A stretch of 26,722 nucleotides of DNA from a virus. Location: IMG/VR virus record IMGVR_UViG_3300010296_000064, positions 1-26,722 of that record; one strand, given 5' to 3'. Made by a program: the position numbers and the translations under genes. Each line of letters starts with the position of its first letter. Position 1 is the first letter of the stretch. The notes beneath the pieces were generated by a model. It was not told the origin of the DNA and did not search any database. It worked only from the letters and a program-made list of their open reading frames with translations. This document shows, piece by piece, positions 3,209 to 17,493 of this stretch.

Positions 3209-3873
3209 TATCTAAGTGTGTTTTGACTATCATCAGCACCATCAGTTGGAACTTTGATAGACATAGTTAATTCTTGAACTACATATTGTTCTACTTCAGA
3301 AAATAAATAGTCAGGTATGTTTAAAGATTGATCTTGTTTAATAAGACATTTATCAGAATCGCATGACTCTGTATCATTTTCAAAGATGGCTTCTATCTTA
3401 ACTGCATCCCAATCTAGATTTGGAAAATACAAGTATCCATCTAGATACCAGAAGTATTGTCTCTTATTATACTTAAACGTAGTAGTTTTAGTCATAGAAA
3501 CAAAAGTACCTGGATCAGTTCTAAATAACTCTATAGAACCATCAACTGATGATACAGTCCTAAATATAGGACCCTGGATGCCAGTCAATAGATCTGGAAC
3601 ACGTTCTTTAGTTCTCTTAAAATAACATCCTGAGTATACACCTACGCATGCAGCATCTACTTTATCTACTTCTATAAGCTCAACATAAGGCATTACTTTA
3701 AAGATGTTACTAATCTGCATAAGCCTTCTTTGGTTATCTTCTCTCTTCATAAGAGAGTTACCATACTTTATAAGTGAAAAGTAGATTGTTCTGTCTGTTA
3801 GGAATGGATCTTCCTTAACAGCCTTTAGTGTGTTTCTTACTCTTGATATTGCTTCGCCAACTGTTGTACTCAT
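3208..3873 (-). CDS. Conserved ring/connector-type structural protein (crAss-like), 221 aa
   Basis: A 221-residue protein with a helical N terminus (TVGEAISRVRNTLKAVKED, residues 4-22) and a second helix containing SLIKYGNSLMKRED. A beta-rich middle follows (CYFKRTKERVPDLL; FKYNKRQYFWYLDGYLYFPN). The C-terminal helix SEVEQYVVQELTMSIKVP leads into a short polar tail. A helix-beta-helix plan in a 200-240 aa protein is common in head-tail connector, ring and tail-tube-terminator proteins of podoviruses. I recall near relatives beside the 345-aa type gene in crAss-like phages. It overlaps the stop of the upstream 193-aa gene by 4 nt (ATGA) and is linked to the next gene by TAATG. The function is inferred from family resemblance and position. 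Confidence 0.85.
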   Translation of the reverse strand: MSTTVGEAISRVRNTLKAVKEDPFLTDRTIYFSLIKYGNSLMKREDNQRRLMQISNIFKVMPYVELIEVDKVDAACVGVYSGCYFKRTKERVPDLLTGIQGPIFRTVSSVDGSIELFRTDPGTFVSMTKTTTFKYNKRQYFWYLDGYLYFPNLDWDAVKIEAIFENDTESCDSDKCLIKQDQSLNIPDYLFSEVEQYVVQELTMSIKVPTDGADDSQNTLR

Positions 3874-4451
3874 AAATCAAATTCATTATAGCCATCTAAA
3901 GCATGATCTTGCTTCTTCAGTCTTATTTCATTAGCTACCTTTTTAGAGTAAGCTAGTTTTATTTTCTGCTTTGGATCAACTACTATATAGTTGTTCCAGT
4001 TTTCAGGATATGATTTAGCTACTGCTCTTTTAAACTCTCTACATGCAGTAAAGCCCCAAAACTCTCTGTTCTTAATTTTGTGCTTTAATCTTCCATTAGT
4101 AAAGAATATCTTAGCAAGCTTACCATCACTATCCCAGTTCTTGTTGGCAACCTTAACACCGTATTTTTTAGATTTAGCAAAGTCTACATTTTTCTTTTTA
4201 CTTGGTTGACATGTACCTATGAATAACCAACCTAGTGATTCGGGAAGTTCTACTCCACCCCTCTTGTCAATCACTGTTTCATAAACCAATTTATTAAAGG
4301 ACTTAATAATTGATCTAAGCTCTTTATCCTTTAGGTTTTTATACCTTGGATACTTTTCTCTAAATCTGTCAAAGAACTCTTTATTTAAAACTTCATAAGT
4401 GTCAGCTCTAAATCTTGGAGCGTTTAAGTCTGGTGTTTTGAATGTTTCCAT
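3870..4451 (-). CDS. Basic structural-block protein, possible HU/IHF-like fold, 193 aa
   Basis: A 193-residue Lys-rich protein. Residues 25-65 form two predicted helices (KNLKDKELRSIIKSFNKLVY) followed by a turn and strand (GGVELPESLGWLFIG). This resembles the helix-helix-beta plan of HU/IHF subunits, where a helix precedes a 'V-L-G-F-G' strand. A basic region follows (KKYGVKVANKNWDSDG, then GRLKHKIKNREFWGF). Published crAss-like genomes carry IHF-like genes within the structural block, which supports but does not prove the idea. The gene directly follows a strong terminator and a GTATATTAT element, so it probably starts a new transcript covering the neck/tail genes. It could also be an ordinary head-tail adaptor. 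The coding call is secure and the fold call is weak. Confidence 0.8.
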   Translation of the reverse strand: METFKTPDLNAPRFRADTYEVLNKEFFDRFREKYPRYKNLKDKELRSIIKSFNKLVYETVIDKRGGVELPESLGWLFIGTCQPSKKKNVDFAKSKKYGVKVANKNWDSDGKLAKIFFTNGRLKHKIKNREFWGFTACREFKRAVAKSYPENWNNYIVVDPKQKIKLAYSKKVANEIRLKKQDHALDGYNEFDL

Positions 4452-8117: not shown

Positions 8118-11066
8118 TTAAGAATTGCAAGAGCAATGTGAAGTTGAGTTTCCGCAACAATCTGCTATTTGATCACATGTATAATCAGGATCTGTTAGCG
8201 CTTGTAACTCTATTAATTCTTTTTTAATTAACCATTTTTCATCTTCTTCAGGACAGCAATTAGATATACCATACCTTAATTCAAGTACTTTCTTATATGC
8301 TATATCTGCAAAGTTGCATGTAATTTTATCATACTTATCTGCAGAACATATAGGAGTATTGTATCCTGGTTTTACTTTTCTTTTATTTGGAAAGTGTTGA
8401 ACACAATGAGCATACTTTGTGACTGGTAGATCTGGACAATCAGCAACAAAAGATATAAGACCATTAGGTCCAACAACACTTCCTGATTTACTTTCTACAC
8501 CAGGAATAGTACCATTACTTTGCCAAAGTACAGGATTAGATTCACTTTCCCCTGCTGGACAATTTAATATACCACCTTTTATCCTTCCTAATACATTTGG
8601 ATATGTATCAATACCTACATCAGAACTGCAAACCCATCCTCCTGGAATATCTGATGTTGATGCCCATACTTTATATTCAAAACCATTTATATCAACATCC
8701 CATACTTTTTCATTATTATAAAATTCACCAGTATGTACTGCTAGATATGTAAATGTATTATTGTCAAGATCTGTTACTCTAAAAGTAAAACAATCACAAT
8801 ATTCTGTTTCAGCAACACTTTCAAATACAGTACAATCTCCATAGAAGTTAAAGATAAAGCTGTCTGGCTCATTCCATTCTTGTACACAATATCTAAGTGA
8901 AAAATGTCCTGATTTTACTACTTCTGTTATTTGAGTATTTCCGTTAACATCTATATAATTAAATACTCTATCTTCTGTACTGTTATTAAATACAGTAGAA
9001 CATCTTGGAGGAACCTGATTACACTCGGGACAAGTTGCAAAGTTTTCCTCTACAGTAACTGCTTCTACAAATGATGGAACCTCTGTATAAGATTCTACAA
9101 AGAAGCAGAAGTTACAGTTCTCAATTTTAATATACTGACCTACATATAATATTAGATTTGTATTTGTAATTATAGTAGTACCTGAATCATTACAGTCTGT
9201 GAGTATAAAAAACTCAGATTGACACGTTTCGCAATCATCATAGACTTGATCAATTGTAATTGGAGTATTTATTGGAGGTTGATAATCTATTTCCTGTACT
9301 GTGTAACAGTCGCAGTCATCCTTTATTACTTTATCTACATACTCAGATAAATCTTGTGTAGTATAAGTATTAATCAAAGGATTAGCACAAGATGTAAGTT
9401 TGTAAGCTCTAGTAGGTAAACAAGCTTCACAATCTATATAATCTTGGATTACAGTTACATCTATAGGACAATCACATTCTTCAGTTACAGTTACTGTCCA
9501 ACATCCTTCATATCCAGCTAATACAACTACAGAGTTACCATATGCATATTGTGATAAACTTTGTAAGTTTGAAGTTAGTACAGGATCTTGATCTGGATGT
9601 TGTAATGGTTCACAGTTAGTAAGTAAAAAACATTGTTCTATACATTCACCATCTCTACAATCTTCACCTATTATAAGAGTATAATCTTCTCCTTCTACAC
9701 CTACAATATTTGGGGCAGTTGCTGCACAGAACTTATCTGCACCTGAACTAGTTACTAATACAGTATTTCCTGTTTCACAATCAATATAAGTAAAAGTACC
9801 TGAGTAACCTATTACTTCATAGCATATACAATTACATCCATCACATGGTCCTGTAACTGTAACAGGTTGAGTTTGCAGTCCAGGTAAAGTATTAATAAGT
9901 TGATTTGATACTGCTAACTTGCCGCCAATTGCTGAAGGATCTTTTATTTCATTAACTGCAGAGTACTCTTGTACAAACCAGCATCCTGGTATACTATCTA
10001 GTTCAACATATGTACCTATATATGCAGATAAATCTGTTTCAGTATTTATAGTAATACCTTCACAATTGGTTAAAGAATATATTATAGGATTACACTCTGG
10101 ACAAGGAGGTCTTTCACAATCACCTGCTTTTTCTAATTGTGTAGAATAAGGTGCTAAAGGAAGATTGTTATAATCAGTTTCATCTTGTGGTGCAGGAGCT
10201 GCCTCAGTTCCTAAAGTATGCAGAGTACCCGTATAACACTGACCTACTACAAATCCAATATTTTGAGTCTGTAAAGCTGTCTGAGTAAATAAAAATACAC
10301 CTGTGTAAGCTGCAGGATTTACTATAGGACCTATATTACCTGTGCCAGATCCTTGATATGAACCGTCTAATCCACCATTTAAACCTCCTGTATAACTTTC
10401 TGTTCTAACATATATAGTATCAAATCCTTCACAGCAAGGTTCAAACTTTAAATATGAGATTCCTTCTTCTGGGCAATCAGCACATCTATTATCATCACAA
10501 CCTAATTCTAGATTCATCTGTTGCCAGGAAGCAGTTGAAAAATCTAACTCTATTAAAGTTTGTATAGGGTCATCTTGTAAGTTTCTAGTAAAAGTATAAC
10601 ACTGACCTGGTTCTAGTATTAAATCTGTACCTAGTATTGGAAGTGTTTCAGGACCTCCATATATATATACACCATCTTGGTAATCTAAATCACTTAAAAA
10701 AAGATTTACTTGTTGAGCTGCTGCACCCTGTGTGCCAAACTCAGGACAACAAGGAGATATATAATATAACCAAGGACAAGAACAAGGACCTTCATCATAG
10801 TCTGCACAGTCTTGGCTAGCACCTAATTCAAGAAAAATAAACTCAGATAAGTCTACTGTTGCTTGTCCAATACCAGGAGTCGGTGCTTCTTGGATGATAT
10901 AACATTCGCCTGTATCTAAAACTAATCCGCCAGCTACAATTAACTGTGGTGAATTCCATGTATATAAACCAGGTTGAAAACCAGCTGTATCAACAAGATT
11001 AACATCAATAAAATATTGAGCTCCTCCACAACAGTTGTTTATTATATATCTAGGTATTTGTGACAT
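8118..11066 (-). CDS. Very Cys-rich modular virion protein, 982 aa
   Basis: A 982-residue protein with about 63 Cys (6.4%), mostly as CxC, CxxC and CC pairs. Three N-terminal modules (residues about 6-98, 100-199 and 205-325) share a starting CC pair, an x-G-Q-C-Y- or G-E-C-Y-type core and a closing Cys cluster. Four further modules (residues about 328-413, 479-549, 554-615 and 618-682) share the frame L-T-x-C ... T-x-x-L-S-x-Y-x-G ... C-W/Y/F-x-V ... V-T-V ... C-x-x-C. A different insert (GTFTYIDCETGNTVLVTSSG, residues 423-442) separates the first two. The C-terminal 300 residues have other Cys pairs and end in a short Cys-rich tail (CDQIADCCGNSTSHCSCNS). No signal peptide or membrane segment is seen. 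The location among fibre genes suggests a long, cross-braced appendage or decoration protein. I do not know a described function for it. Confidence 0.85.
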   Translation of the reverse strand: MSQIPRYIINNCCGGAQYFIDVNLVDTAGFQPGLYTWNSPQLIVAGGLVLDTGECYIIQEAPTPGIGQATVDLSEFIFLELGASQDCADYDEGPCSCPWLYYISPCCPEFGTQGAAAQQVNLFLSDLDYQDGVYIYGGPETLPILGTDLILEPGQCYTFTRNLQDDPIQTLIELDFSTASWQQMNLELGCDDNRCADCPEEGISYLKFEPCCEGFDTIYVRTESYTGGLNGGLDGSYQGSGTGNIGPIVNPAAYTGVFLFTQTALQTQNIGFVVGQCYTGTLHTLGTEAAPAPQDETDYNNLPLAPYSTQLEKAGDCERPPCPECNPIIYSLTNCEGITINTETDLSAYIGTYVELDSIPGCWFVQEYSAVNEIKDPSAIGGKLAVSNQLINTLPGLQTQPVTVTGPCDGCNCICYEVIGYSGTFTYIDCETGNTVLVTSSGADKFCAATAPNIVGVEGEDYTLIIGEDCRDGECIEQCFLLTNCEPLQHPDQDPVLTSNLQSLSQYAYGNSVVVLAGYEGCWTVTVTEECDCPIDVTVIQDYIDCEACLPTRAYKLTSCANPLINTYTTQDLSEYVDKVIKDDCDCYTVQEIDYQPPINTPITIDQVYDDCETCQSEFFILTDCNDSGTTIITNTNLILYVGQYIKIENCNFCFFVESYTEVPSFVEAVTVEENFATCPECNQVPPRCSTVFNNSTEDRVFNYIDVNGNTQITEVVKSGHFSLRYCVQEWNEPDSFIFNFYGDCTVFESVAETEYCDCFTFRVTDLDNNTFTYLAVHTGEFYNNEKVWDVDINGFEYKVWASTSDIPGGWVCSSDVGIDTYPNVLGRIKGGILNCPAGESESNPVLWQSNGTIPGVESKSGSVVGPNGLISFVADCPDLPVTKYAHCVQHFPNKRKVKPGYNTPICSADKYDKITCNFADIAYKKVLELRYGISNCCPEEDEKWLIKKELIELQALTDPDYTCDQIADCCGNSTSHCSCNS
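9021..10085 (-). repeat. Four tandem Cys-framed protein modules (type B)
   Basis: The encoded modules begin IIYSLTNC, CFLLTNC, AYKLTSC and FFILTDC. They continue with DLSAYIG, LSQYAYG, DLSEYV and LILYVG, then GCWFVQE, GCWTVTV, DCYTVQE and FCFFVES. They close with CDGC, CEAC, CETC and CPEC. Each unit is about 62-86 residues. The repeat is clear at protein level but not at DNA level, so it is an old duplication. Confidence 0.75.
10092..11051 (-). repeat. Three degenerate Cys-framed protein modules (type A)
   Basis: The units are about residues 6-98, 100-199 and 205-325 of the 982-aa protein. They share a leading CC pair (NNCCGG, SPCCPEF, EPCCEGF) and a core TGECYIIQ, PGQCYTFT or VGQCYTGT. They end with a Cys cluster (CSC, CADC, CPEC). 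Divergence is high, and the third unit carries a Gly-rich insertion. The assignment was made by eye. Confidence 0.6.
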
Positions 11067-11067
11067 T

Positions 11068-11214
11068 TTACTTTACAAATTTATTCAAGCTCTTATTTTT
11101 AATAGAAGCTTCATACGATGCTTTGCAAGATTTACAAACTGAAGTACCATCAGAAGCTTTTGCTCTCTGACAGCCACATCCTAGTCTTTTCTTGCAGTTA
11201 TTACATGTCGCCAT
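11068..11214 (-). CDS. Small paired-Cys (zinc-ribbon-like) protein, 48 aa
   Basis: This 48-residue frame starts MATCNNCKKRLGCGCQ and contains C4-x2-C7, C13-x-C15 and C27-x2-C30, an arrangement compatible with one or two zinc sites. The tail is basic (SIKNKSLNKFVK). It fits exactly between the 180-aa gene and the 982-aa gene: 19 nt after the former, and its stop lies 1 nt before the latter's start. The first seven residues resemble the N terminus of the 553-aa fibre (MACSNCN), hinting at a common small Cys domain. It could be a minor virion protein or a factor used in folding or attaching the Cys-rich appendages; neither is proven. Confidence 0.75.
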   Translation of the reverse strand: MATCNNCKKRLGCGCQRAKASDGTSVCKSCKASYEASIKNKSLNKFVK

Positions 11215-13405: not shown

Positions 13406-14104
13406 TTAATTATTTCTTTCAGCAGTTTGAGTACCTCTTGGGTATTGTACTGGAGATTCTATATCTCCTGCTAGTACACTAACTGTTTCGTCAATGATTA
13501 GTTCTATAATGTCATCTTTAAATTCTGATTCCACATTAACTAATGTTTCTTCATTAGTATATGGATCTACACATCCTTGTAACTGAATGCGTCTTGGTTG
13601 TCTGTAATAAATCAAGCTTGCTTCTGATATATCAAACTCATCATTAGTATAAATATGCACTTGGTTATTAATTAGGGTAGCAAATGTTTCTGCCCACTCA
13701 AAGCTAGGCTTCTTTGCTTTATCTCTAAGTAATTGATTTAAGTTACCTTCTTCTGCTAGATAAACTGTCATTCTTCTATCATCACAGCAATCCTTGCATG
13801 CTAATACATCTACTCTTTTCCACTGTAAATAGTCAGTGGGAACATTACCAAAGAAGTAATCTTTCTTATCAGTAACTGTTAATCCATCTGTAGTAAGTAA
13901 AACTTGTAAGTCATCTTTTCTTCTAGTAGACTGCTCATCACCTTCTTTAACAATATTAAGTCCGTGCAGCTGTCTTCTACACCATTCAACTTGCGCTTTG
14001 TTAAATGCTTCAACAATTTGCCAGCATTCTAAGTTATCATAATCTTGGCTGTCAAGTTTATTGATCCGCTGTTTTACTTTTATGACTATTGTACTGTTTA
14101 ACAT
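13406..14104 (-). CDS. Head-tail connector/ring-like protein (crAss-like), 232 aa
   Basis: A 232-residue protein with a helical N terminus (IKVKQRINKLDSQDYDNLEC, residues 8-27, then WQIVEAFNKAQVEW). A beta-rich core follows (KKDYFFGNVPTDYLQWKRVD; NQVHIYTNDEFDISEASLIY), with Cys residues at CKDCCDD near residue 115. The C-terminal helix is FKDDIIELIIDETVSVLAG. The helix-beta-helix plan matches the 221-aa protein at the other end of the block and is common in connector/ring proteins beneath the portal. I recall the family as conserved in crAss-like structural blocks. Its start is coupled by TAATG to the last of the small basic genes, so the basic cassette and this virion component are translated from the same message. 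Confidence 0.85.
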   Translation of the reverse strand: MLNSTIVIKVKQRINKLDSQDYDNLECWQIVEAFNKAQVEWCRRQLHGLNIVKEGDEQSTRRKDDLQVLLTTDGLTVTDKKDYFFGNVPTDYLQWKRVDVLACKDCCDDRRMTVYLAEEGNLNQLLRDKAKKPSFEWAETFATLINNQVHIYTNDEFDISEASLIYYRQPRRIQLQGCVDPYTNEETLVNVESEFKDDIIELIIDETVSVLAGDIESPVQYPRGTQTAERNN

Positions 14105-14448
14105 TATGTTCTTTTATAAGTACCTTTTTTCTTTTCTTTTTTATAAATATCCTTTACATAACTTTTCATATGCTTAGGTAATTCTAACTCACCAGCTGAA
14201 CTAAAGACACTACCTTTTTTAGTAGCTTTCATTCTGCTTTTTATAGCACTCTTAGCATACCTTGGGTTTTTATATGCACCCTTTGTAGTAAGCTTTAAGT
14301 TTTCTGCTATATCATAACCTAAAGGTTTTTCAATCTTAACATCTTCAAAAGGACCTCCCTCATTATACTTAGGATAAGACTTAACTACTTTACCCATTCT
14401 AGCTTCATTATTTTTTCTAAATGTGGTCAATGGACTTACTTTTTTCAT
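14104..14448 (-). CDS. Small basic protein with Lys-rich C terminus, 114 aa
   Basis: A 114-residue Lys-rich protein (MKKVSPLTTFRKNNEARMGK) with a mixed middle (NEGGPFEDVKIEKPLGYDIA) and a basic helical C-terminal half (AKSAIKSRMKATKKGSVF; DIYKKEKKKGTYKRT). It is the last and largest gene of the basic cassette, overlapping the previous gene by 4 nt (ATGA) and the 232-aa gene by 1 nt (TAATG). I do not recognise a family. The acidic patch in residues 34-50 sets it apart from its neighbours. A role as virion cargo or in DNA condensation is inferred only from charge and position. Confidence 0.78.
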   Translation of the reverse strand: MKKVSPLTTFRKNNEARMGKVVKSYPKYNEGGPFEDVKIEKPLGYDIAENLKLTTKGAYKNPRYAKSAIKSRMKATKKGSVFSSAGELELPKHMKSYVKDIYKKEKKKGTYKRT

Positions 14449-14657
14449 TTCTTTTTCTTTTTTCTAAGTTTACCAAGAGTGATTGCAAACCTTGCACGTT
14501 GTGCAGTTTTACCTTTACCCTTAGCTTTTTTTTGCAACCAAGACTTCTTTATCTTTTTATTCTTAGCATCATAACCACCTTCTCTCTTAGCAGTAGCTGT
14601 AAGAGATCCTGGTTTCTTAATAGCTTTCTTGATATTTAGTTTTTTCTTAGTTGCCAT
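14445..14657 (-). CDS. Lys-rich protein of a small phage family (PGSLTATAKREGG type), 70 aa
   Basis: A 70-residue protein with 28 Lys/Arg (40%) and only two acidic residues. The pattern KKPGSLTATAKREGG followed by KTAQRARFAITLGKLRK matches, from memory, a recurring small protein of aquatic phages in which 'PGALT-x-A-K' is followed by 'G-x-x-x-x-R-A-R-F/L-A-x-x-L'. It ends in five Lys. The gene follows a 15-nt gap holding a GTATATTAT element and overlaps the next gene by 4 nt. Nucleic-acid binding is likely from composition, but no function is established that I know of. Confidence 0.8.
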   Translation of the reverse strand: MATKKKLNIKKAIKKPGSLTATAKREGGYDAKNKKIKKSWLQKKAKGKGKTAQRARFAITLGKLRKKKKK

Positions 14658-14660
14658 ACT

Positions 14661-14669
14661 ATAATATAC
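14661..14669 (-). promoter_or_regulatory. GTATATTAT element within the basic-protein cassette
   Basis: The minus strand reads TTTGTATATTATAGTATG, with the core only 3 nt before the ATG at 14657. If this is a promoter, the transcript would be leaderless or nearly so, or it would serve the next gene (14448). This is the weakest of the five copies as a promoter for the adjacent start. Confidence 0.35.
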
Positions 14670-14672
14670 AAA

Positions 14673-14951
14673 TTAGTTTCTACATTTCCATCTTCTCCTA
14701 GCTTTTCTCAAACGGCTATTTGGATCTTTAGCAGCTTTTGGAAACTTTTTCATTTGACCTTTAGATCTAGCACAGTAGCTTTTCTTTCTTGCACCACCAC
14801 CTGGCTGAGGAGCTTTAAGTTTAGAGCCAGTCTTTCTGTTAATCATCTTACGACCTTTAGCAGTAAGACCACCTTTCTTAGACTTGCAGCCATTCTTAAT
14901 GCTGCAACCTTTCATTGCTCCTTTCTTCTTGCTACTCTTTTTAGTTGCCAT
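14673..14951 (-). CDS. DUF6321-like small basic protein, 92 aa
   Basis: A 92-residue protein with 34 Lys/Arg (37%), one acidic residue and four or so Cys. The core GGLTAKGRKMINRKTGSKLK, followed by GGARKKSYCARSKGQMKK, then AAKDPNSRLRKARRRWKC, fits the DUF6321 signature as I remember it (GGLT-x-K-G ... K-S-F/Y-C-A-R ... A-K-D-P-x-S-R-I/L-x-K-A-x-R-x-W-x-C). That family occurs in cyanophages and giant viruses and has no known function. The gene sits in the middle of the cassette with TAATG coupling to the 47-aa gene before it. Its occurrence beside capsid genes supports a virion or DNA-associated role. The family call is from memory, without a profile search. Confidence 0.82.
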   Translation of the reverse strand: MATKKSSKKKGAMKGCSIKNGCKSKKGGLTAKGRKMINRKTGSKLKAPQPGGGARKKSYCARSKGQMKKFPKAAKDPNSRLRKARRRWKCRN

Positions 14952-15094
14952 TATTTCTTTTTCTTTTTAGGTTTAGTATGAGTATAACCAAGTTTTTTTA
15001 AACGTAAATGATCAGCCATTTTTTTAGCCATAGTACCTTTACCTGTTTTAGGATTGTACATCATATGAGCTTTAAACTTTTTAGTAGTTGCCAT
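14951..15094 (-). CDS. Very small Lys-rich protein (MMYNPKTGKG type), 47 aa
   Basis: A 47-residue frame occupies the whole interval between two cassette genes, with 1-nt TAATG overlaps at both ends, which is strong evidence that it is real. It has 16 Lys/Arg. The sequence HMMYNPKTGKG, then ADHLRLKKLGYTHTKP, followed by five Lys, resembles short proteins I recall from aquatic phages ('MMY-x-P-K-T-G-K-G ... H-L-R-x-K-K-x-G-Y-T-H'). No function is known to me. The poly-Lys end is encoded by A-rich codons that also form the leader of the next gene. Confidence 0.78.
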   Translation of the reverse strand: MATTKKFKAHMMYNPKTGKGTMAKKMADHLRLKKLGYTHTKPKKKKK

Positions 15095-15357
15095 TACTTC
15101 TTCTTTTTTCTTTTTCTAATAGAACTAGTTCTTCTACCCATTCCTACTCTTTTCTTTTCAGCAACAGCTTTAGCTTTCTGAGACTTAGATAATGACCCCC
15201 ATGTTCTAGGTGTCTTCTTAGAAACCTTTTTAGTAGGTCTGCACTTTTTGGTTTTCTTATTCTTAGAAGAGCCACAAGGATTTCCTTTCTCATCCTTCCA
15301 CTTTTCTTTAAACCACCTTTTAAGTGCAAGACCCTTAGCTGTTTTTCTTACTGCCAT
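15094..15357 (-). CDS. DUF5872-like small basic protein, 87 aa
   Basis: An 87-residue protein with 35 Lys/Arg (40%). The order LKRWFKEKWKDEKGNPCG, then a Lys-rich stretch, CRPTKKVSKKTPRTWGSLSK, and a basic end GRRTSSIRKRKKKK, fits the DUF5872 pattern as I remember it ('K-R-W-F-K-E-K-W-V-D ... P-C-G-R ... C-R-P-S-x-R-V-S-x-x-T-P-K-T'). That family is found in phages, giant viruses and some cells, with no assigned function. The two Cys (CG and CRP) may bind metal. Both ends join neighbours by TAATG. The assignment is from memory. Confidence 0.82.
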   Translation of the reverse strand: MAVRKTAKGLALKRWFKEKWKDEKGNPCGSSKNKKTKKCRPTKKVSKKTPRTWGSLSKSQKAKAVAEKKRVGMGRRTSSIRKRKKKK

Positions 15358-15545
15358 TACTTAATCTTTCCTCTACGTTTTCTACATTTAGCAATGTATC
15401 CACTAGCATAAGCTGAAGGAAATACTCTGTACTTAGCTTTTGCTTTTCTATAGCAAGCATCTTTCTTAGACTTCTTTTTAGATCCTCCTTTTCTAAAGAA
15501 TTCTAAAATTTCACCATCAGTATTTACTCTACTATAATTAGGCAT
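15357..15545 (-). CDS. Lys-rich protein with FPSAYASG motif, 62 aa
   Basis: I chose the ATG at 15545 (MPNYSRVNTDGEILEF), which leaves a 1-nt gap after the previous stop, over the ATG at 15590, which would overlap that gene by 44 nt. The 62-residue product has 20 Lys/Arg (32%). Its core KDACYRKAKAKYRVFPSAYA continues SGYIAKCRKRRGK. The pattern 'C-Y-x-K-x-K-x-x-Y-x-x-F/W-P-S-A-Y-A-S-G-x-x-x-K-C-R-K' recurs, from memory, in many marine phages. The conserved aromatic/Cys core suggests a small folded domain and not only a charged tail. Function is unknown to me. Confidence 0.8.
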   Translation of the reverse strand: MPNYSRVNTDGEILEFFRKGGSKKKSKKDACYRKAKAKYRVFPSAYASGYIAKCRKRRGKIK

Positions 15546-15546
15546 C

Positions 15547-15753
15547 TTATTTACTTTTTTTAGACTTTCTAGCAAAAGTAGTACTTCCACCGTTTTTCAT
15601 TCCCACTAGACCTTTAAGAAATTTCTTAATTTCATTTCCAGCCTTCTCTAATTCATTTAAACCTTGACCTGGTTTGGGTTTACAGCTTCTACGTTTACAG
15701 TCTCTATACTGCCTAGTTTTTTCATCATATTTGCAAGGACATTTTGGATCCAT
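15547..15753 (-). CDS. Small Cys-containing basic protein, 68 aa
   Basis: A 68-residue protein with four N-terminal Cys (C5, C7, C19, C24; MDPKCPCKYDEKT ... DCKRRSCKPKPG) that could form a small metal or disulfide site. A short amphipathic helix follows (ELEKAGNEIKKFLKGLVG), then a basic end (FARKSKKSK). It lies 2 nt after the 75-aa gene and 1 nt before the 62-aa gene. I do not recognise a family. The helix plus Cys knot distinguishes it from the purely Lys-rich neighbours. Confidence 0.75.
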   Translation of the reverse strand: MDPKCPCKYDEKTRQYRDCKRRSCKPKPGQGLNELEKAGNEIKKFLKGLVGMKNGGSTTFARKSKKSK

Positions 15754-15755
15754 AA

Positions 15756-15983
15756 TTATCTACGTTTTAAAGTTTTCTTTCTAGGTAAAGTTTTCTTAGG
15801 TTTAGAAGGTGCACCACCAGCTAAGTTTTGAAGTTTCTTAACTTCTGCCATAGCAGCTTTTCTAACCTCAGCCATAAGCTTTGCATCTTTTTGAATCTCT
15901 TGAGCTCTTTGTAGAGTACTCATTGCTGAGGCTACTTCAAACTCTCGCATATCTTTTTTATTCATGTTAGTAATTTTAATCAT
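15756..15983 (-). CDS. Helical protein with basic tail, 75 aa
   Basis: A 75-residue protein. Residues 8-55 form one long amphipathic helix with coiled-coil character (FEVASAMSTLQRAQEIQKDA, then MAEVRKAAMAEVKKLQNL). Residues 60-75 are a basic Pro-containing tail (KPKKTLPRKKTLKRR). The ATG at 15983 is chosen because it forms the TAATG coupling seen throughout the cassette; a second Met at residue 7 (15965) is possible. The architecture of an oligomerising helix plus basic tail would suit bridging protein and DNA, or binding to the inner capsid surface. That is inference. Confidence 0.75.
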   Translation of the reverse strand: MIKITNMNKKDMREFEVASAMSTLQRAQEIQKDAKLMAEVRKAAMAEVKKLQNLAGGAPSKPKKTLPRKKTLKRR

Positions 15984-16243
15984 TAATAACCACCTCTTTT
16001 CATAACTTTAGTATCTAGTGACCGTCTAAAGCTACCACCTGCATACTTTTTATCACCACTTAGTGTTCCGCTTTTTTGATCTAAGAAACTATTTACAGCT
16101 GTCTGTCCACCAACCATTAGCATTTGTCCAGAAAGAGATCTTGGGTTATTACTGTACATGGGCATAGTTTTACTGCACATGCATGAACCACCCATTTTCA
16201 TTTTTGATCCTCCATCGGAGTACATCATTTTATTATTTGCCAT
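15983..16243 (-). CDS. Met/Gly-rich small protein, 86 aa
   Basis: An 86-residue protein rich in Met, Gly and Ser. MYSDGGSKMKMGGSCMCS, near the N terminus, resembles small 'M-Y-x-x-G-G' proteins I recall from Bacteroidota phages. A less biased middle follows (MLMVGGQTAVNSFLDQKSG), then a basic end (SFRRSLDTKVMKRGGY). The GG-spaced Met/Tyr/Lys motifs are like those in the preceding 68-aa protein, so the two may be related. It starts 2 nt after that gene's stop and ends in TAATG. Function is unknown. Confidence 0.75.
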   Translation of the reverse strand: MANNKMMYSDGGSKMKMGGSCMCSKTMPMYSNNPRSLSGQMLMVGGQTAVNSFLDQKSGTLSGDKKYAGGSFRRSLDTKVMKRGGY

Positions 16244-16245
16244 AA

Positions 16246-16452
16246 TTAAAAAGATTTTTTCATTCTGTTATATCTCATCTTCTTTCCACAAGAACCTCCA
16301 TATTTATAAGCTCCTGTTTCCATTGCAGATGCAGCACCACCGATTTTTTTGTAACCTTTAGCTTTTAGTGCATCAAAAAGTGCTTGACCACCAGCTGTGC
16401 CACCATTTTTCTTCATGCTCATTCCGCCATAACCGTAATTCATTTTTTGCAT
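16246..16452 (-). CDS. Gly/Met/Lys-rich small protein, 68 aa
   Basis: A 68-residue protein (65 if it starts at 16443). It has GG-bounded blocks: YGYGGMSMKKNGG at the start, then FDALKAKGYKKIGG, then YKYGGSCGKKMRYNRMKKSF. The central stretch GGQALFDALKAKGYKK is probably a helix. The second ATG (16443, MNYGYGG) has the better A-rich context (ATGCAAAAA directly before it). The first ATG overlaps a TATATATTAT sequence close to the promoter-like element, so 16443 may be the true start. It is the first gene of the small-protein cassette, 15 nt after the 341-aa gene. No family is recognised. Confidence 0.72.
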   Translation of the reverse strand: MQKMNYGYGGMSMKKNGGTAGGQALFDALKAKGYKKIGGAASAMETGAYKYGGSCGKKMRYNRMKKSF

Positions 16453-16467
16453 AATATATATTTTAAT

Positions 16468-17493
16468 TTAACTTTTCCAATATTGCTCACAGGACTTTGT
16501 TAAATCATCTAAGATATCTTCATTAAGAGGATTCTTTAAATATTCTACTACATCAGAAACATTTCTTCCAAGTAGAACATTCTTCTTAGTATGATATATA
16601 TGTCCATCACTCTTTGTAACAATATGTTTAAAGAATGTTGAATCTTTAACAATACTTCGGAGCTTTAATGTTTCCATATCAGATCCTACTGTATCTATAA
16701 ATACTTTAACAGCTCTTTCTACATTACTCTCTGCTCCATCTCCATGTATGAATTCATCCATGTTTTCATACAATACATCTATTGGAGTAGACTTTTTATA
16801 CTGAGTACTGTTTGCATCTACCACTTTTGCTACATAGAATAGTTTAGTACTATTTTTGTCAAATAACTTTTGTAACTCAGATAACGCTTTGTTTCTAAGT
16901 TTCTTGTATTCTGTTCTAGTAGATACAGATTCTTCTTCTTTATCTAGATAGAACTTTGGTGGTCTTGGTTTAGACTTAGCGTCTTCATAACTTTTTGCAA
17001 TTAAAGAAAATCCACCTGCTTCAATTGCACATAGTTTAATTCTATCATAAGGATCAGCCATATTCAAATACTTAGGCTCATTTCCTACAGATATTTCAAT
17101 CTTATTCCAAAACTCTGAGTTATCAGGTTTTAAAAGTTTAACCTTATTCCAAAAGTCTTTGTCTTCTGGGTCAAGGATATTAGATGCTAGTTCAGCTTCT
17201 AAGTCAGCAACTGTTGCTCTTATTTGCTTTACCTTAGCTTCTCTTTTTTCAGGACTGAGTTTTTTAATCTCTGGAGCAAACTCATTTAGTCCTGTTAAAT
17301 ATCTATTGATACCGTTGATCTCTAGACATGCTAATTGTTCTTGGTGTGTTACACCATCAAATAAACTAAGTCCATAATTTTCTAGACCCATGTTTTCTGA
17401 TCTTGCATCAAAGTAAGGTCTGATTTTAACCTTAGATTCTCTGCTGTTAGTTGGGACTTCTACCATTGTGAAGTCATCATTTTTCTTTGCCAT
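16468..17493 (-). CDS. Conserved head-region protein after the MCP, 341 aa
   Basis: A 341-residue protein starting MAKKNDDFTMVEVPTNSRES. It contains a charged helical segment (residues about 78-110, LSPEKREAKVKQIRATVADL) and a central region with FWNKIEISVGNEPKYLNMAD. Further helices follow (TRTEYKKLRNKALSELQKLF), and the C terminus holds HIVTKSDGHIYHTKKNVLLG. I recall related proteins next to the MCP in crAss-like phages without a firm function; inner capsid or auxiliary roles are possible. The gene has an A-rich CAAAAA leader like that of the MCP and lies after the terminator that ends the MCP transcript. It is therefore expressed by read-through or from a promoter I could not identify. Confidence 0.83.
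   Translation of the reverse strand: MAKKNDDFTMVEVPTNSRESKVKIRPYFDARSENMGLENYGLSLFDGVTHQEQLACLEINGINRYLTGLNEFAPEIKKLSPEKREAKVKQIRATVADLEAELASNILDPEDKDFWNKVKLLKPDNSEFWNKIEISVGNEPKYLNMADPYDRIKLCAIEAGGFSLIAKSYEDAKSKPRPPKFYLDKEEESVSTRTEYKKLRNKALSELQKLFDKNSTKLFYVAKVVDANSTQYKKSTPIDVLYENMDEFIHGDGAESNVERAVKVFIDTVGSDMETLKLRSIVKDSTFFKHIVTKSDGHIYHTKKNVLLGRNVSDVVEYLKNPLNEDILDDLTKSCEQYWKS

What the first reader, a model, noticed from the sequence alone, without database searches (positions are those of the whole stretch)
14104..16452. Cassette of ten tiny, mostly Lys/Arg-rich genes embedded in the virion gene block
Ten end-to-end genes (47-114 aa) lie between the head genes and a connector gene. Several have 32-40% Lys+Arg with almost no acidic residues (70, 92, 87, 62 and 47 aa). 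Others add Cys knots, a long helix or Gly/Met-rich blocks. They are joined by TAATG or ATGA or separated by 1-2 nt in nearly every case, so they are co-translated with structural proteins. I infer a set of virion-packaged DNA-condensing or cargo proteins, functionally like protamines. The variety of folds suggests a multi-part system and not copies of one gene. I know of no description of such a set as a system.
Basis: partly seen in the sequence, partly recalled or inferred. Interest (0 to 1): 0.85.

Follow-up and report, generated by a model that had tools for sequence, protein, structure and literature searches.

The report
Swappable set of basic virion genes
In a group of water-dwelling crAss-like phages, ten tiny, strongly positively charged genes sit between two virion genes; the set is shuffled quickly from phage to phage but always stays positively charged, and relatives of some of its parts were detected in the particles of an unrelated phage, so it is probably a set of DNA-bound proteins carried inside the virus.

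Summary
Ten co-directional genes (47-114 aa, all net positive, +187 in total) lie end to end between the gene after the major capsid protein and a head-tail adaptor/ring-protein gene of a crAss-like phage. All 41 relatives that span the site carry a cassette there; sister crass-like phages have the two flanking genes abutting. Content turns over fast: phages with 93-96% identical capsid proteins share about 22% of cassette genes. Charge is nevertheless held: 318 of 320 cassette proteins are positive, whereas the flanking virion proteins are negative.

The parts are not unique. Two are Pfam DUFs (DUF6321, DUF5872). Related tiny basic genes sit among head or packaging genes of T7-like, Pam1-like and other phages, and modules are fused into one protein in T4-like cyanophages. 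In one of those, S-CREM2, published mass spectrometry of purified virions detected proteins carrying two of the modules.

Best reading: a modular, fast-evolving set of virion internal proteins that ride on the DNA, in logic like T4 internal proteins. Bulk protamine-style condensation is possible but numerically demanding. Packaging and DNA binding are untested for this phage. I found no description of the set as a system.

The parts
16468..17493 (-). upstream flank, 341-aa gene following the MCP (g341)
   Evidence: orthologues directly abut the adaptor gene in sister phages
16246..16452 (-). cassette gene 1, 68 aa, Gly/Met/Lys-rich, net +12
   Evidence: 59% id homologue in same slot of L009, dN/dS 0.44
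15983..16243 (-). cassette gene 2, 86 aa, Gly/Met-rich with YSNNPRxxxGQ motif, net +9
   Evidence: family matched in 13 relatives; motif HMM iE 4e-12
15756..15983 (-). cassette gene 3, 75 aa, probably helical, net +13
   Evidence: family matched in 27 relatives
15547..15753 (-). cassette gene 4, 68 aa, four Cys, net +13
   Evidence: only an identical copy found (L002)
15357..15545 (-). cassette gene 5, 62 aa, KCRK module (KDACY..FPSAYASGYIAKCRK), net +16; in-frame GTG at 15590 would give 77 aa
   Evidence: PHROGs 727/38880/3477; module HMM iE 2e-17; fused to next gene in 19 relatives
15094..15357 (-). cassette gene 6, 87 aa, Pfam DUF5872, net +31
   Evidence: Pfam PF19197 E=1.4e-14
14951..15094 (-). 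cassette gene 7, 47 aa, HMMYNPKTGKG..GYTHTKPK module, net +15
   Evidence: 65-79% id homologues in L004, L009
14673..14951 (-). cassette gene 8, 92 aa, Pfam DUF6321, net +33, near-universal core gene
   Evidence: Pfam PF19846 E=9.8e-16; in 39 of 41 relatives; dN/dS 0.05-0.07 vs closest relatives
14445..14657 (-). cassette gene 9, 70 aa, IKKPGSLTA..TAQRARFAITL module, net +26
   Evidence: phrog_20603 E=4e-7; dN/dS 0.05-0.18
14104..14448 (-). cassette gene 10, 114 aa, N-terminal SPLTTFRKNNEAR (variant of the NPLxxF...AR motif usually on the last cassette gene), net +19
   Evidence: 59% id match in L052; motif
13406..14104 (-). downstream flank, 232-aa adaptor/ring-protein gene (g232)
   Evidence: phrog_29507 virion structural protein; orthologue in csAssE-Sib annotated ring/adaptor

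Best explanation
The cassette encodes a fast-turnover set of small cationic virion internal proteins. They are translated in the late virion operon, bind DNA non-specifically through Lys/Arg, are carried into the capsid with the genome, and probably enter the host with it, where some shield or organise the incoming DNA. One component (DUF6321) is a near-constant core; the others are exchangeable modules drawn from a vocabulary shared by unrelated aquatic phages. Shown: operon position, synteny, positive charge held through content turnover, purifying selection, module sharing and fusion, and (published) virion detection of proteins with two of the modules in another phage. Inferred: packaging, DNA binding and ejection in this phage.
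For: Same slot in 41/41 relatives, absent in 12 other crass-like loci where the flanks abut. 318/320 cassette proteins positive, +0.187 +/- 0.028 charge per residue, while 243 flanking virion proteins are all negative. Turnover: MCP 93-96% identical pairs share 22% of cassette genes. Modules beside head or packaging genes in DSL-LC04 (MCP-cement-[basic genes]-adaptor), P-SCSP1d, Ran, S-CBP4, CRP-7; fused in T4-like cyanophages. S-CREM2 virion MS: gp160 (KCRK + CWPGY modules, 7 unique peptides) and gp137 (DUF6321, 4 peptides). T4 internal proteins, the nearest analogue, are highly diverse, packaged at about 1000 molecules, and their lysines contact DNA phosphates (PMC3012670). Shared termini: C-terminal KKGGxVKxKKK-type tail in 26 of 87 family representatives vs 0.8-1.4 in shuffles, 48/277 ORFs inside vs 3/652 outside cassettes, one of the three on a portal C-terminus.
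Against: No direct virion data for this lineage. phiCrAss001 virions were reported to carry large cargo proteins (PMC10172136), with no such small basic set mentioned in the passages read. The S-CREM2 peptides could come from outside the modules (gp137 coverage 4.1%), and that preparation also contained proteins such as Cas9. The C-terminal tail is absent from the ten window proteins. A lone DUF6321 gene in Microcystis phage LMM01 lies among helicase genes. AlphaFold models are low confidence (pLDDT 63-70).
Confidence: 0.6

Rival explanations
1. Protamine-like bulk condensers: the products coat and neutralise the packaged genome at high copy number, replacing polyamines and cations.
For: Charge density held through rapid sequence turnover, as expected if charge itself is selected; ascovirus P64, a large cationic mosaic protein, condenses its genome (PMC6163548).
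Against: Mean +164 per cassette against about 245,000 phosphates: full neutralisation needs about 1,500 copies of each protein; about 1,000 molecules in all (the T4 internal-protein figure) would neutralise about 7%. Invariant Cys/Trp/Gly positions in DUF6321 and its dN/dS of 0.05-0.07 among close relatives suggest a specific fold, not just charge. Sister phages package 100-150 kb genomes without the cassette.
Confidence: 0.2
2. Injected counter-defence or host-takeover proteins: the cassette is an arms-race locus whose products act after entry, with positive charge serving mainly to load them onto DNA.
For: Very fast content turnover with conserved flanks; conserved N-terminal motif with variable remainder on the last gene; T4 internal proteins are a diverse set of injected defence proteins with only a targeting sequence conserved (PMC3012670).
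Against: 318/320 basic is more uniform than expected for a free effector locus; no enzymatic or known anti-defence domain among the ten by Pfam or PHROGs (PADLOC not searched); DUF6321 is near-constant.
Confidence: 0.3
3. Assembly or shell proteins: small cement, portal-vertex or scaffold-binding proteins that use positive charge to bind the acidic scaffold and capsid proteins.
For: Position between the MCP-side gene and the adaptor; the scaffold-like protein is acidic (pI 4.7); the tail motif occurs on some portal C-termini.
Against: Content differs almost completely between phages with nearly identical capsid proteins; shell proteins would be expected to co-evolve with the MCP.
Confidence: 0.12
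4. Accretion hotspot: unrelated small accessory genes collected at an insertion-tolerant site, without virion function.
For: Homing-endonuclease-like genes also occur in some cassettes.
Against: Composition is far from random; the same modules occupy head-gene slots in unrelated phages; purifying selection.
Confidence: 0.08

Closest known systems
Bacteriophage T4 internal proteins (IPI, IPII, IPIII)
   Same: small, lysine-rich, highly diverse between close relatives; reported to be packaged with DNA, IPI* injected (PMC3012670)
   Different: no sequence or fold similarity shown; no capsid-targeting sequence plus prohead protease pair identified; here a contiguous cassette of 4-11 genes with modules shared by unrelated phages
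Pfam DUF6321 (PF19846)
   Same: 92-aa cassette gene is a member (E=9.8e-16)
   Different: family is uncharacterised; here it is a core member of a multi-gene cassette
Pfam DUF5872 (PF19197)
   Same: 87-aa cassette gene is a member (E=1.4e-14); a DUF5872 protein is also listed in an algal virus, CpV-BQ1 (PMC12085832)
   Different: matches only profile positions 49-112 of 116
T4-like cyanophage cluster T4-GC 119
   Same: contains KCRK and DUF6321 modules (and CWPGY in S-SM1) of the cassettes; beside neck/terminase genes; one record (S-B68) annotates it as structural
   Different: modules fused in one long protein instead of separate genes
Ascovirus P64 and baculovirus P6.9 DNA-condensing proteins
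   Same: cationic viral DNA-binding virion proteins
   Different: Arg/Ser-rich, single genes, eukaryotic viruses, no homology shown
phiCrAss001 cargo proteins (gp45, gp46, gp47, gp49, gp50)
   Same: virion-carried proteins of a crass-like phage
   Different: large (60-277 kDa); a small basic cassette is not mentioned in the passages read

Membership tests
Pfam DUF6321 | profile match above gathering score | tested here: met
   58.6 bits vs cut-off 28.5
Pfam DUF5872 | profile match above gathering score | tested here: met
   55.1 bits vs cut-off 27.5
T4-type internal head proteins | small and lysine-rich/basic | tested here: met
   47-114 aa, net +9 to +33
T4-type internal head proteins | highly variable between close relatives | tested here: met
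   22% shared genes at 93-96% MCP identity
T4-type internal head proteins | shared N-terminal capsid-targeting sequence cleaved by a prohead protease | tested here: inconclusive
   NPxxxF-type N-terminal motif in 17 of 41 loci and a C-terminal tail in 32; no common N-terminal sequence on all ten; protease not searched for specifically
T4-type internal head proteins | present inside the head | not testable with these tools
   only indirect: S-CREM2 virion MS of module-bearing proteins
T4-type internal head proteins | ejected into the host | not testable with these tools
   needs experiment
Protamine-like condensers | enough positive charge at plausible copy number to neutralise the genome | tested here: inconclusive
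   about 1,500 copies of every protein needed (arithmetic and the 122.6-kb relative)
Crassvirales virion block (setting) | TerL, portal, MCP and ring/adaptor families in order | tested here: met
   phrog_6681, 6547, 11589, 29507; HMM matches for MCP and adaptor in phi14:2, phi17:2, csAssE-Sib, Lbo-JY46

The most novel reading that the evidence does not exclude
Aquatic phages of several unrelated lineages share a combinatorial kit of small cationic modules (DUF6321, DUF5872, KCRK, CWPGY, KVNQAG and others) that are shuffled, fused and split, loaded into virions on the DNA (in crass-like phages perhaps addressed by short terminal tags such as KKGGxVKxKKK), and delivered with it: a modular virion chromatin/cargo system.
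Probability: 0.3. Interest if true: 0.85.

Novelty: new variant of a known kind. Interest (0 to 1): 0.63.

Why it matters
Modules of this kind occur in hundreds of cyanophage and other aquatic phage genomes (536 phage records for DUF6321, and 365 for the KCRK module, at the limits used; many records are near-identical isolates), nearly always annotated hypothetical. Recognising them as parts of one virion-linked cassette gives a testable function to several orphan families at once, supplies a strong case of composition conserved through rapid gene turnover, and suggests candidate packaging tags.

Tried and rejected
No nucleotide relatives in the phage collection at megablast level, no Rfam or tRNA feature. 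PDB sequence search with DUF6321 and KCRK/DUF5872 profiles: nothing. AlphaFold of DUF6321 (pLDDT 70, four helices) and of the fused 112-aa protein (pLDDT 63); Foldseek gave no significant match, so no fold claim is made. Chance ORFs in K-rich reading frames: rejected by dN/dS and conserved frames for most genes. A broken DUF5872 gene suspected in L008 was rejected: it starts with GTG overlapping the preceding stop. Copies of one gene: rejected on distinct motifs and families (the loosest clustering merged some by low complexity). A fully shared packaging tag on every protein: rejected, it is on a subset and not on the window's own ten. T4-GC 119 as an MS-proven structural protein in S-SM1 could not be verified (the table is in a supplement not held); its RefSeq record says hypothetical. 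Literature searches for the set as a system found nothing, within the open-access library only.
Full report
Setting. The window is a 26.7-kb fragment of a virus record. All the genes assigned here run on the minus strand: terminase (phrog_6681), portal (phrog_6547), an acidic scaffold-like protein, MCP (phrog_11589), a 341-aa gene, the cassette, a 232-aa adaptor/ring-family gene (phrog_29507) and further virion genes. This is the Crassvirales virion block; the closest cultured phage by portal is Leptolyngbya phage Lbo-JY46, 33.5% identity.

Observation. Ten tightly packed genes, all net positive, total +187 over 769 aa. Two have 15-nt leaders; the rest overlap or are separated by 1-2 nt. Codon-level comparison with relatives shows purifying selection for eight of the ten, strongest for DUF6321 (0.05-0.07 against the three closest relatives, rising to 0.36-0.69 against more distant ones, where synonymous sites approach saturation), the 70-aa gene and DUF5872.

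Synteny. A search with the MCP returned 80 loci at 87-100% identity. Of these, 41 span both flanks, and every one has a cassette of 4-11 co-directional ORFs, 0.87-4.9 kb. A few of the 41 are near-duplicates of one another (for example L022/L026, L057/L062). In phi14:2, phi17:2, csAssE-Sib, Lbo-JY46 and eight Lbo-JY46-type metagenomic loci the MCP, the next gene and the adaptor are contiguous. The intervening gene is confirmed by profile as a g341 orthologue in phi14:2 (E 2e-4) and in five of the eight metagenomic loci (E 1e-14 to 6e-17); in the others it is assigned by position. The cassette therefore marks this clade (gain here is the simplest reading; loss elsewhere is not excluded). Six long relatives have exactly one DUF6321 place each, inside the cassette; four other cultured crass-like phages and seven sister contigs have none (the second search had no positive control in the same run).

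Charge versus content. 318 of 320 cassette proteins are positive; the per-cassette mean is +0.187 per residue (SD 0.028), whereas all 243 flanking virion proteins measured are negative. Yet pairs with 93-96% identical MCP (n=269; pairs are not independent) share only 22% of cassette genes, with flanks 77-79% identical. DUF6321 is the near-constant member (39 of 41).

Modules. The 62-aa KCRK gene and the adjacent 87-aa DUF5872 gene are one 112-aa protein in 19 relatives. DUF6321 is fused to other cassette modules in L012, L024, L030, L034, L037 and L063. In T4-like cyanophages KCRK and DUF6321 modules, with a DUF5872-like segment recognised by eye only, are fused in the T4-GC 119 protein (P-SSM2, Syn9, S-SM1, S-IOM18; Pfam did not call DUF5872 in these). 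In other phages they are separate tiny genes: DSL-LC04 (MCP-cement-[basic genes]-adaptor), P-SCSP1d (MCP-[DUF6321, 58 aa]-tail tube A), Ran and S-CBP4 (between scaffold and MCP), HTVC033P (seven basic genes), CRP-7 (DUF6321, KCRK and DUF5872 homologues beside the terminase). These examples were chosen by me from the hit list for lineage diversity, not sampled at random; LMM01 is a counterexample.

Virion evidence. In S-CREM2 (PMC10665884, Table 3) CsCl-purified virions yielded 7 unique peptides of gp160, which carries CWPGY (iE 4e-12) and KCRK (iE 8e-17) modules, and 4 of gp137, which ends in DUF6321 (iE 5e-17). This supports virion association of module-bearing proteins in one unrelated phage; it does not show it here.

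Terminal motifs. A C-terminal tail of the type KKGG(S/A)(V/I)K.KKK ends 26 of 87 family representatives, against 0.8-1.4 expected from shuffling; 48 of 277 ORFs inside cassettes against 3 of 652 outside, of which one is a portal C-terminus and two are cassette-like basic proteins. The pattern was defined after looking at these sequences, so the enrichment is descriptive; families may share the tail by recombination. An NPLxxF...AR N-terminus marks a protein in 17 loci, last before the adaptor in 12. The window's 114-aa gene has a variant of it; none of the window's ten has the C-terminal tail. These are candidate addressing signals, nothing more.

Mechanism. Bulk condensation is numerically demanding (about 1,500 copies of every protein to neutralise 122.6 kb). 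DNA-riding internal proteins with T4-like logic fit position, charge, turnover and the S-CREM2 data best. Whether their role is protection, organisation or counter-defence after entry is open; the counter-defence rival overlaps with the best explanation and the confidences given are not exclusive.

Novelty. Two members are known DUFs and internal head proteins are a known kind. The shared, shuffled kit and its fixed charge are, as far as the searched open library shows, undescribed.

Noticed in passing
L042:8630-9358, L052:8420-9040, L021:13961-14533, L076:14109-14528: Probable homing endonucleases (GIY-YIG- and HNH-like by eye) inserted within the basic cassettes of relatives.
   Followed up: no
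L086:6001-6198 (Synechococcus phage P60, 37238-37435): A DUF6321 protein is encoded in an unannotated frame; the annotated gp45 there is in a different frame and looks spurious.
   Followed up: partly
window 11068-11214: 48-aa Cys/Lys-rich gene (6 Cys, 23% K+R) among virion-block genes, outside the cassette.
   Followed up: no
window 3870-4451: 193-aa basic protein (22% K+R, pI 9.8) without a PHROG match, next to a virion structural gene.
   Followed up: no
window 8118-11066: 982-aa acidic protein with 63 cysteines.
   Followed up: no
L012 and a few other relatives, portal C-terminus: Portal ends in KGGSVKNKK, like the tail of cassette proteins; portal tails are otherwise variable and Lys-rich.
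   Followed up: partly
L060:554-850, L079:523-909: Further tagged basic proteins about 9 kb upstream of the MCP, outside the cassette slot.
   Followed up: no
L099:5001-5264 (Microcystis phage LMM01): Lone DUF6321 gene on the opposite strand among helicase genes, away from virion genes.
   Followed up: no
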